DNA of 64,000 bases from Acetomicrobium thermoterrenum DSM 13490 (GTDB taxonomy: Bacteria > Synergistota > Synergistia > Synergistales > Acetomicrobiaceae): the NCBI RefSeq assembly GCF_900107215.1, contig NZ_FNPD01000005.1, forward strand, positions 62,001 through 126,000, given 5' to 3'. Numbering within the stretch: position 1 is the first letter of the stretch; every line of letters starts with the position of its first letter. Below, in pieces: positions 19,215 through 43,380 of this stretch. Under the pieces are notes generated by a model. It saw nothing but the letters and a program-made list of their open reading frames with translations. It did no database searches and was not told where the DNA came from. The translations under genes and the position numbers were made by a program.

Positions 19215-20243
19215 ATGTCACCGTGTTTGTTTTCAACATATTCACAAAACGAGAATAGGGTAACATCAACATTCCTTGCGGTGTTAAGTTCTTTATCTTT
19301 GAATTTGATGCAACAAATAATTGGGGCAATGATTGGCGATGAGGTGGAATTGATTAGATTCACCAACCAGCCTGCTAGCAAGAGACAACAGAACCACTCA
19401 GTACCAGATGCAATGATATCTGGGGATTTTAAGATACTAATCGAGACGAAACTACAACAAAATGCCGTGGATGAAGATCAAATCAGGAAGCATCAAAAAC
19501 AACTAGAAGATAGAAAAAATGCATACCTAGTTATATTAACTCCAGACCCAACGTGTCCTGGTGTTGTGGAAAATATATCGAAAGAAGACCCTAGAGTAGT
19601 GTGGTGTTCGTTTAACCAGATAAATCATATTATCGATAACTTCTTTGAAAACGGTTCTGAGGTAATTTCTGAAAAGGACGCCTTTTTGCTGAAAAATTTC
19701 CAAATGTTCCTAGATCATGAGAATCTTTTAAGTCAGCCCAAGGTTTTGATCGTTCCCATAAGTCAGCTCAAGGTTTTGATCGTTCCTGCGAGGTTTGCCT
19801 GGTCTCATTATTTAAAGACTTCGTCTTACGTCTGTCAGCCAAATCGGACTTTTCAAAAAACAACATACATCGCGTTTTACAACAGGGGCAAAATTATGCG
19901 AAAGGTTCCCAAAATTCTGAAAGCAGTAAATGAAGTGGTATTTTGGGAAGAAGGCAATTTCGAAGTATTGTCCAATGATTGGAGTCAGAGTGACGAAGAA
20001 AAATTCGGCGAAAAAATGAAAGAAGTTGTTAAAAAGTCAATTGGTTCGAGCTTGTATAATGTAGGAGAAAGTCACAAAGTATTATTATTAACAGGTCCCG
20101 AAGAAGAAGAAACAATTTGTATTAATAAAGAAATCCCGAATGATAGTGTAGACAAAAACGGTGCACCGACTGCGTTTGTACAAAGGCAAAGGTACACATC
20201 GGTGGAAAAGCTATTGAGAGCTGAAAAAACAAGTGATTTGTAA
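19215..20243 (+). CDS. PD-(D/E)XK-family nuclease-like protein of unknown role
   Basis: A 342-residue protein I cannot assign to a named family. Residues 60-80 contain HSVPDAMISGDFKILIETKL, the D-x(n)-ExK arrangement of PD-(D/E)XK nucleases, preceded by a helix starting at ENRVTSTFLAVL. The C-terminal half (190-340) is an uncharacterised alpha/beta region. Residues around 173-192 contain a tandem duplication (SQPKVLIVPI, SQLKVLIVPA) produced by a 27-base direct repeat at 19733-19786. A GGAGGGAGG ribosome site precedes the ATG. It stands alone between toxin-antitoxin relics, in a defence-island-like setting. A host-defence role is inference only. Confidence 0.6.
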   Translation: MSPCLFSTYSQNENRVTSTFLAVLSSLSLNLMQQIIGAMIGDEVELIRFTNQPASKRQQNHSVPDAMISGDFKILIETKLQQNAVDEDQIRKHQKQLEDRKNAYLVILTPDPTCPGVVENISKEDPRVVWCSFNQINHIIDNFFENGSEVISEKDAFLLKNFQMFLDHENLLSQPKVLIVPISQLKVLIVPARFAWSHYLKTSSYVCQPNRTFQKTTYIAFYNRGKIMRKVPKILKAVNEVVFWEEGNFEVLSNDWSQSDEEKFGEKMKEVVKKSIGSSLYNVGESHKVLLLTGPEEEETICINKEIPNDSVDKNGAPTAFVQRQRYTSVEKLLRAEKTSDL

Positions 20244-20254
20244 AAATATTTGGT

Positions 20255-20293
20255 GTCTACCATTATAAAACCACTAAATGAACGGTAGGCCCC
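20255..20293 (-). repeat. CGGTAGGCCCC-family 39-bp repeat
   Basis: GTCTACCATTATAAAACC then ACTAAATGAACGGTAGGCCCC. The reverse complement matches 43342-43380 closely (GCCTACCG, ATTTAGTGGTTTT, ATGGTAGAC). It lies 11 bases after the stop of the nuclease gene. The ends GTCTACC/GGTAGGC form an imperfect inverted repeat. Confidence 0.65.
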
Positions 20294-20306: not shown

Positions 20307-21200
20307 TCAGCCTTTCTGTTCCTCCAACTTATTTAGAAAGGCCATTACATACGAAAGAAATTTGCTGAAATCGTCCAATTCATAGTGGATTGTACGGTAA
20401 ACTAGCTTGCTATCAACTTCCCAATATACATGGACGATGATGTTGCGCATTGCGCATATACGAGCCAGTTTGTCGGCAAAACCTTTAGGGATGACATTTA
20501 GCGAGGCAAGTGTTTTGAAGATATCTGCATAGGTCTTTGGCGCCTTAAAATTGCCCTTAAACTGATGCAATGAAAGCAAACGATTGCCTATGTTTATACA
20601 CGTCTCGATTGCGATTTGTAAGTAACGTTCCGTCGCTGCCTGTAAAGTTTCATCTTTTAGATATTCCTCTATAGGCTTTTGTCGAATCTTTTCAAGGCGA
20701 CTTATGTATTCCTGTAACAATTCAATTTGGTTCATTAATTTAATATCCATTGAAGGCTCCTCCGAATCACCTATGAGTCTCTTGTAATACTCCCGCAGAA
20801 TCGGATAAAAGTCTAGGTAAGCGCCCAAAACCTTAGCCTGAAAATCTACCAAGGCTTGAGGATCGTAAAGGACCAGGATGACTTTATCTTCTATTGCGCT
20901 AAATTGCAGGGTTAACGGTGCAACACTTAGATTTACTAAGTCAAAGTCATCCGTGTGCATCAGCCGAGAGAGATCGAGGTAAAGATTTGAATGAATCTTA
21001 AACATTTCCCATTCGCTTAAACCTTCACGGTACAAAACTGCCAGGTCGATATCGCTCAAAGGCGTGACCTCATCTCGACTCGCAGAGCCGAACAAAAGCA
21101 GGGCTGCAACCTCTTTCCTGTAGGGCATTAGCGCATCCGGGGCCCTTTGAAGCTGTTTTAATATGAAATCAAAATCAAGCGGTCTTTCGCTCAAGCGCAT
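20307..21200 (-). CDS. Fused MntA-HepT toxin-antitoxin protein
   Basis: A 297-residue single polypeptide. Residues 1-135 are a minimal nucleotidyltransferase with LLFGSASRDEVTPLSDIDLA, so the GS-x10-DxD metal site is intact. Residues 145-297 are a HepT/HEPN helical bundle ending in CAMRNIIVHVYWEVD, an exact R-x4-H-x-Y ribonuclease signature. In type VII systems the separate MntA enzyme adds AMP to the tyrosine of HepT and silences it. Here both modules with all key residues are in one chain, so modification would be intramolecular or between dimer partners. No separate partner gene is adjacent. Domain calls are firm; the mechanism is transferred from the two-gene systems. Confidence 0.85.
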   Translation of the reverse strand: MRLSERPLDFDFILKQLQRAPDALMPYRKEVAALLLFGSASRDEVTPLSDIDLAVLYREGLSEWEMFKIHSNLYLDLSRLMHTDDFDLVNLSVAPLTLQFSAIEDKVILVLYDPQALVDFQAKVLGAYLDFYPILREYYKRLIGDSEEPSMDIKLMNQIELLQEYISRLEKIRQKPIEEYLKDETLQAATERYLQIAIETCINIGNRLLSLHQFKGNFKAPKTYADIFKTLASLNVIPKGFADKLARICAMRNIIVHVYWEVDSKLVYRTIHYELDDFSKFLSYVMAFLNKLEEQKG

Positions 21201-42821: not shown

Positions 42822-42857
42822 AAGGAGAGAAAAGCAAATAAGGAGAGAAAAGCAAAT
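42822..42857 (+). promoter_or_regulatory. Tandemly duplicated ribosome-binding segment
   Basis: Two perfect 18-base copies of AAGGAGAGAAAAGCAAAT (42822-42839 and 42840-42857) lead into the start of the nucleotidyltransferase gene. The second copy spaces its AGGAG about ten bases from a TTG start. A TATAAT hexamer at 42792-42797 may be the promoter -10. Confidence 0.75.
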
Positions 42858-43279
42858 TGAGAAGCATGGTTCGCATTGACGAAGATCGCATAAAAGAAGC
42901 CGTCGGTTCGGCATTAATGGACATGAAAGAAATTGCCGGAGTTTACCTCTTTGGATCTGCCCTTGGGTTGTGCCGACCCGACAGCGATATAGATATCGGC
43001 CTGGTCATAAAACCGCTTTACGGCAAGCCGGACAAATATTATTTAGACATAGCCCTTGCCGCGGAGACACGCCTTGACCCCATCGATGGGCACCCCTTCC
43101 AGGTTGTCCCCTTAAACATAACGGACTGCATCTTCGCCTTTAACGTCATAAGAAAGGGGCGGTTAATTCACGAGCCTGATCATGAGGCGGTGACCGATTT
43201 CACGGAGATGATAAGCCGTCGTTACGGGGAAAATTACCCGCGTTACATCAAATATCTAAAGGAAATAGTGGGGGCATAA
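42857..43279 (+). CDS. MntA-type minimal nucleotidyltransferase (antitoxin)
   Basis: A 140-residue MNT-domain protein, the antitoxin half of a HEPN-MNT pair. The active-site motif GVYLFGSALGLCRPDSDIDI is complete (GS-x10-DxD), so AMP transfer should be possible. TTG at 42857 is the likely start, with ATG nine bases later as the alternative. Its stop overlaps the ATG of a HepT gene that survives only as 16 codons at 43279-43329. The antitoxin is therefore an orphan whose toxin has been deleted. Confidence 0.85.
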   Translation: MRSMVRIDEDRIKEAVGSALMDMKEIAGVYLFGSALGLCRPDSDIDIGLVIKPLYGKPDKYYLDIALAAETRLDPIDGHPFQVVPLNITDCIFAFNVIRKGRLIHEPDHEAVTDFTEMISRRYGENYPRYIKYLKEIVGA

Positions 43280-43329
43280 TGATGACTCTCGATACGGAAC
43301 GGGTCAGAAGAAAGATAGCCTATTACTAG
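43279..43329 (+). pseudogene. HepT toxin remnant (16 codons)
   Basis: MMTLDTERVRRKIAYY-stop is the recognisable N-terminus of a HepT/DUF86 toxin and begins at the stop of the MNT gene (TAATG overlap). Similarity stops at a TAG, and 12 bases later a repeat (43342-43380) begins. The HEPN catalytic R-x4-H-x-Y region is gone. Confidence 0.72.
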
Positions 43330-43341
43330 CAAACCCCTTGA

Positions 43342-43380
43342 GCCTACCGCTTATTTAGTGGTTTTTGTAATGGTAGACCC
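43342..43380 (+). repeat. CGGTAGGCCCC-family 39-bp repeat after the HepT remnant
   Basis: GCCTACCGCTTATTTAGT then GGTTTTTGTAATGGTAGACCC is the reverse-complement counterpart of 20255-20293. The rest of the gap to 43434 shows no gene. Confidence 0.7.

What the first reader, a model, noticed from the sequence alone, without database searches (positions are those of the whole stretch)
20307..21200. MntA antitoxin and HepT toxin fused in one polypeptide
Type VII systems encode HepT and MntA separately and rely on AMP transfer to the HepT tyrosine. Here the complete nucleotidyltransferase site (GSASR..SDIDL) and the complete HEPN motif (R-x4-H-x-Y) are in one 297-residue chain. A covalently linked pair cannot be separated by antitoxin degradation, so regulation must differ (for example reversible modification or a trigger). 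It may be a self-contained sensor instead of an addiction module.
Basis: partly seen in the sequence, partly recalled or inferred. Interest (0 to 1): 0.68.

Follow-up and report, generated by a model that had tools for sequence, protein, structure and literature searches.

The report
Toxin–antitoxin pair fused by stop-codon loss
In Acetomicrobium bacteria a common two-gene toxin–antitoxin pair has become one gene, most simply because the antitoxin's stop codon changed to serine; both enzyme sites are intact and the toxin's own start signal survives inside the gene, so the toxin may be made both joined to its antidote and on its own.

Summary
ORF 20307-21200 (-) encodes 297 aa. Both halves exceed the curated cut-offs for type VII MntA and HepT, with every published catalytic residue present (G38, S39, D50, D52, D87; R252, H257, Y259). 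It is not an assembly error: four Acetomicrobium genomes carry it at 95-97% identity, both halves under purifying selection.

The fusion is most simply explained as one stop-to-serine change. The closest relative (62% identical MntA) has a TAA stop at the codon that is TCA (Ser150) here, with hepT's ATG directly next in the same frame. Haloarchaeal plasmids show the same in-frame layout with TGA, TAA or TAG. The other 26 over-cut-off HepT genes found in Synergistota are not fused.

Free HepT may therefore still be made, as in known gene-within-gene systems.

Type VII neutralisation works by AMPylation, so fusion does not force a different regulation, and nothing shows a sensor. Fused MNT-HEPN proteins were noted in 2013. 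I call it a new variant of type VII TA.

The parts
20307..21200 (-). mntA-hepT fusion gene, 297 aa
   Evidence: ORF; NCBIfam/Pfam matches to both halves; conserved in 4 genomes
20802..21116 (-). MntA (MNT adenylyltransferase) domain, aa 29-133
   Evidence: NF047752 68 bits over the 60-bit cut-off; model matches MntA crystal structures, TMt about 0.73
21045..21089 (-). GS-x10-DxD nucleotidyltransferase motif, aa 38-52
   Evidence: G38, S39, D50, D52 invariant in 14 MntA sequences
20940..20942 (-). third catalytic Asp, D87 (matches D71 of Shewanella MntA by position)
   Evidence: nearly invariant column; role of D71 in PMC7641770
20751..20753 (-). Ser150 codon TCA, at the position of the mntA stop codon in split relatives
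   Evidence: aligned with TAA in G005 and TGA/TAA/TAG/TAG in haloarchaeal plasmids
20757..20763 (-). internal Shine-Dalgarno GGAGGAG
   Evidence: -9.5 kcal/mol to anti-SD; stronger than 98.3% of 2606 internal ATGs; little local structure
20748..20750 (-). internal in-frame ATG (codon 151), the ancestral hepT start
   Evidence: matches hepT start in split relatives
20358..20726 (-). HepT (HEPN RNase) domain, aa 159-281
   Evidence: NF047751 109 bits; TMt 0.83-0.89 to HepT crystal structures
20424..20447 (-). R-x4-H-x-Y motif, aa 252-259: RNase site and AMPylation tyrosine Y259
   Evidence: R252, H257, Y259 nearly invariant
20255..20290 (-). 36-44 bp palindromic element just downstream, also found after a second, broken mntA-hepT locus
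   Evidence: 89% identical second copy at window 43342-43378; only two copies in the genome

Best explanation
This is a type VII (HepT/MntA) toxin-antitoxin module turned into a single gene, most likely by a stop-to-serine substitution at codon 150 where the mntA stop abutted the hepT ATG in frame. The MNT half uses ATP to poly-AMPylate Tyr259 of a HEPN half (its own chain or its partner in the HEPN dimer), which blocks the R252/H257 RNase site; unmodified protein cleaves RNA and arrests growth. Because neutralisation is enzymatic, the fusion can work without free antitoxin. Shown here: domain identities, all motif residues, conservation of the frame and of both halves, and the stop/Ser equivalence. 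Inferred: AMPylation, RNase activity, the trigger (low ATP, de-AMPylation, or excess free HepT), and the direction of the codon change.
For: Both halves exceed curated equivalog cut-offs. Catalytic residues align with 13 other MntA sequences and with the split HepTs. Four Acetomicrobium genomes keep the fusion, with dN/dS about 0.08-0.3 in both halves while the linker is looser. G005 MntA is 149 aa with TAA at codon 150 followed by ATGGATGATAAATTG, against TCA then ATGGATATTAAATTA here. Four haloarchaeal plasmids have the same abutting in-frame layout; the other split pairs examined overlap out of frame. The 26 other over-cut-off Synergistota HepT genes are not fused. The model folds both domains with a break at 146-149 right at the junction, and its best PDB matches are the HepT and MntA chains of the two solved type VII systems.
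Against: No expression or activity data. Known complexes are HepT6:MntA2 or HEPN4:MNT1, and a 1:1 fusion cannot reproduce these without extra HepT. PMC3710099 says HEPN domains fused to MNT typically lack RNase residues, so an intact one is unusual. pTM is 0.52: domain orientation, and hence reach of the NTase site to Y259, is not established. The G005 hepT is itself broken after its first codons near a contig end, so that locus is decayed.
Confidence: 0.62

Rival explanations
1. Gene within a gene: the locus makes two products, the full-length MntA-HepT fusion and free HepT from ATG151. The fusion supplies the AMPylating activity and free HepT supplies the extra toxin subunits; the balance is set by translation. 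Compatible with the main explanation and adds a second product.
For: ATG151 is fixed by homology as the hepT start; its Shine-Dalgarno (-9.5 kcal/mol) beats 98.3% of internal ATGs, equals the median of 337 gene starts and exceeds the fusion's own start (-7.5); the other six internal ATGs of the gene score -3.3 or weaker. The region is little structured. The core GGAGGA is kept in all four genomes. Precedent: rpn genes make an internal antitoxin (PMC10327210). Known complexes hold more HepT than MntA.
Against: A strong internal SD is also what a recent fusion would leave as a relic, and the four alleles are too similar to test selection on it. No ribosome profiling or proteomics.
Confidence: 0.3
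2. A silenced module: tethering keeps HepT permanently AMPylated or sterically blocked, so the gene is a harmless relic in slow decay.
For: Relic mntA with a truncated hepT exists in the same window (42857-43330) and in G005, so these modules do decay in this lineage.
Against: Low dN/dS in both halves and retention of every motif residue across four genomes.
Confidence: 0.17
3. A domesticated two-domain nucleotidyltransferase of the antibiotic-modifying kind, with the HEPN half only a substrate-binding domain.
For: MNT-HEPN fusions of that kind exist (PMC3710099) and AadA/ANT enzymes appear in the fold search.
Against: HEPN RNase motif and AMPylation tyrosine intact; type VII equivalog matches; AadA/ANT superpose poorly over the whole chain (TM 0.3-0.4, rmsd 8-10 A) while HepT and MntA chains match well.
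Confidence: 0.06

Closest known systems
Type VII HepT/MntA of Shewanella oneidensis (SO_3166/SO_3165) and Aphanizomenon flos-aquae HEPN-MNT (PDB 7ae2/7ae9)
   Same: GSX10DXD plus third Asp, RX4HXY, both folds
   Different: two genes and proteins, HepT6:MntA2 in Shewanella; here one chain
Legionella HEPN-MNT (PMC11586414)
   Same: same catalytic logic; ATP-dependent AMPylation proposed as the switch
   Different: two proteins, 4:1; its MNT lacks helix alpha4, whereas here a long helix 114-143, probably alpha4, leads into the linker
MNT-HEPN-M fusions mentioned in PMC3710099
   Same: same two families in one chain
   Different: that paper says HEPNs fused to MNT typically lack the RNase residues; here they are intact
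Single-chain TA proteins: EzeT (PMC4826407), HicA-HicB fusion Slr1999 (PMC4963859)
   Same: toxin and antitoxin in one polypeptide thought to come from fusion of a bicistronic operon
   Different: different families; antitoxin is not a modifying enzyme
Rpn gene-within-gene TA (PMC10327210)
   Same: second product from an internal in-frame start
   Different: there the internal product is the antitoxin; here it would be the toxin, not yet shown

Membership tests
Type VII toxin-antitoxin (HepT/MntA) | MntA with GSX10DXD and third Asp | tested here: met
Type VII toxin-antitoxin (HepT/MntA) | HepT (PF01934) with RX4HXY | tested here: met
Type VII toxin-antitoxin (HepT/MntA) | toxin and antitoxin encoded by two adjacent genes | tested here: not met
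   one open frame in four genomes; an internal hepT start remains. Hence filed as a variant, not an ordinary member
Type VII toxin-antitoxin (HepT/MntA) | AMPylation of the HEPN tyrosine abolishes RNase toxicity | not testable with these tools
   needs mass spectrometry and growth assays
Two-domain antibiotic nucleotidyltransferase (AadA/ANT type) | whole-chain fold match and degenerate HEPN site | tested here: not met
   TM 0.3-0.4, rmsd 8-10 A; RNase motif intact; overall orientation of the model is uncertain
Gene-within-gene TA (Rpn-like arrangement) | internal in-frame start with its own ribosome-binding site | tested here: met
   (sequence signal only)
Gene-within-gene TA (Rpn-like arrangement) | internal product actually made | not testable with these tools
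   needs ribosome profiling or immunoblot

The most novel reading that the evidence does not exclude
A type VII module rebuilt as a gene within a gene: one mRNA gives a self-AMPylating MntA-HepT fusion and, from the retained hepT start, free HepT that the fusion must keep modified, so translation rate and ATP together set whether RNase is released.
Probability: 0.27. Interest if true: 0.62.

Novelty: new variant of a known kind. Interest (0 to 1): 0.42.

Why it matters
Type VII systems neutralise by enzymatic modification, so whether free antitoxin, or any separable complex, is needed is open. A natural fusion with both sites intact, apparently one base away from the split state and beside split pairs in the same genome, is a clean natural experiment: comparing the fused and split forms and the internal start can show directly whether stoichiometry and dissociation matter for type VII control.

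Tried and rejected
Frameshift or assembly artefact: rejected, same frame in four assemblies. Fusion in a Cytobacillus plasmid (NZ_CP097350, L041) as an independent second case: not accepted, it differs from split sisters by a 1-nt indel in a poly-A run and may be a sequencing error. Large open frames around HepT in G052 and G084: split, domains in different frames; G029 is a degenerate HEPN near a contig end without an MNT. Phage relatives: none; viral contigs: none. First AlphaFold run with HepT rows only gave a poor MNT half and was not used. A global alignment of mixed halves misaligned MntA and HepT and was discarded. Reading the defence-library hits PDC-S09 as membership: not done, they cover only the generic nucleotidyltransferase core.

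Full report
Observation. The minus-strand ORF at 20307-21200 encodes 297 aa. Against NCBIfam its N-terminal half matches the MntA equivalog (aa 29-133, 68 bits, cut-off 60) and its C-terminal half the HepT equivalog (aa 159-281, 109 bits, cut-off 60); Pfam agrees. Aligned with 13 other MntA sequences, G38, S39, D50 and D52 are invariant and D87, the third metal-binding Asp by position, is nearly so. R252, H257 and Y259 are nearly invariant among HepT rows. Every residue that the published mechanism needs (PMC7641770) is there.

Where it is. The window lies in an Acetomicrobium genome (Synergistota): nearest named relatives are A. hydrogeniformans ATCC BAA-1850 and Acetomicrobium sp. UBA5826. 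The same fused frame is found in four held Acetomicrobium genomes, G000, G003, G004 and G066, at 95-97% protein identity; two other held species of the genus, G001 and G002, lack it. NG86 estimates give dN 0.010-0.024 with dS 0.07-0.22 in the MntA half and dN 0.009-0.028 with dS 0.06-0.13 in the HepT half; the linker changes faster. These are few substitutions (26-40 nt per pair) but point to purifying selection on both halves.

How the fusion arose. The closest relative, in a different family of the same order (G005), has a 149-aa MntA, 62% identical, ending in TAA at codon 150, directly followed in the same frame by ATGGATGATAAATTG. In Acetomicrobium codon 150 is TCA and the next codons are ATGGATATTAAATTA. 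Haloarchaeal plasmids have the same abutting in-frame layout with TGA, TAA, TAG and TAG at that place, while the other split pairs examined overlap by 4-14 nt out of frame. So one stop-to-serine substitution suffices, with no insertion or deletion. Direction is inferred from the outgroups, which are split: none of the 26 other over-cut-off HepT genes found in 188 Synergistota genomes is fused (two with long open frames were read and are split; the rest have open frames too short for both domains). The G005 hepT is itself broken soon after its start, close to a contig end, so that locus is not a working control.

The hepT start survives inside the fused gene. Its position is set by homology, and it sits behind GGAGGAG with a duplex energy of -9.5 kcal/mol to the anti-Shine-Dalgarno. 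Among 2606 in-frame internal ATGs from about 460 kb of the same genome only 44 (1.7%) score as well; the median of 337 gene starts is -9.5 and the fusion's own start scores -7.5. The other six internal ATGs of this gene score -3.3 or weaker. The stretch is weakly structured as RNA (191 of 200 shuffles fold at least as well). The core GGAGGA is kept in all four genomes. This is a signal, not proof: a recent fusion would keep it as a relic.

Structure. With the relatives' separate halves and two fused orthologues in the alignment, AlphaFold2 gives mean pLDDT 79, both domains folded, a long helix 114-143 (probably MNT helix alpha4, which published work links to HEPN binding; PMC11586414), a weak break at 146-149 and the first HEPN helix starting at Met151. 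pTM is 0.52, so relative domain placement is not known. The best PDB matches are the HepT chains (TMt 0.83-0.89) and MntA chains (about 0.73) of the two solved type VII systems; two-domain antibiotic nucleotidyltransferases superpose poorly over the whole chain.

Mechanism. In type VII systems MntA adds up to three AMPs to the HEPN tyrosine, and binding without AMPylation does not neutralise (PMC7641770). A fused enzyme can therefore modify its own or its dimer partner's tyrosine. The claim that fusion forces another type of regulation does not follow. What fusion does change is stoichiometry: known complexes hold 3-4 toxins per antitoxin, and a fusion alone gives 1:1. Free HepT from ATG151 would restore an excess. 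Proposed triggers in the literature are low ATP, loss of labile MNT, or de-AMPylation (PMC11586414); of these, low ATP and de-AMPylation carry over to a fusion directly. All of this step is inference.

Surroundings. The immediate neighbours of the gene differ among the genomes: phosphomannomutase upstream in the window and in UBA5826, sugar-transferase and aminotransferase genes in A. hydrogeniformans, a glycosyl hydrolase 108 gene and a DUF4351 gene in G004. The shared block is about 1.0-1.2 kb. This fits either mobility or rearrangement of a repeat-rich island. The same genome also keeps an ordinary split pair (C5:42.6-43.5 kb).

Prior knowledge. Fused MNT with HEPN-M proteins were mentioned in 2013 (PMC3710099), with the remark that HEPNs fused to MNT typically lack RNase residues. 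EzeT and a HicA-HicB fusion are single-chain TA precedents; Rpn is a gene-within-gene precedent. My literature search of the held open-access library found no study of a fused type VII pair with both sites intact, but many journals are not held. Verdict: real, well conserved, a new variant of a known kind, of moderate interest.

Noticed in passing
window 42857-43330 (+): A second mntA (140 aa) followed by a hepT cut off after 16 codons (MMTLDTERVRRKIAYY stop): an antitoxin whose toxin has been lost.
   Followed up: partly
window 20255-20290 and 43342-43378: A 36-44 bp palindromic element, 89% identical, lies just downstream of both the fused gene and the broken mntA-hepT locus; these are the only two copies in the genome.
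   Followed up: partly
window 15053, 15844, 18010, 21383, 21430, 45251, 45301, 50467, 50517, 51822: Dispersed repeat TTCAAGATTAAAGAYCYGACC, 20 copies on contig C5 (1-60 kb and the window) and none in 300 kb sampled from eight other contigs; the same clustering is seen in three related genomes. It may mark a repeat-rich island carrying TA genes.
   Followed up: partly
window 19215-20243 (+): 342-aa ORF next to the fused gene with no confident family match (weak Mrr_cat, E 0.18), absent from the same spot in A. hydrogeniformans; possible restriction-like nuclease.
   Followed up: no
L041 1434-2238 (Cytobacillus pseudoceanisediminis plasmid NZ_CP097350): A 267-aa MntA-HepT open frame that differs from split sister plasmids by one base in a poly-A run; either an independent fusion or a sequencing error.
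   Followed up: partly
PDB 9z7q: A solved 'Cmr1-MntA' chain: an MntA domain joined to a type III CRISPR subunit, another natural or engineered MntA fusion.
   Followed up: no
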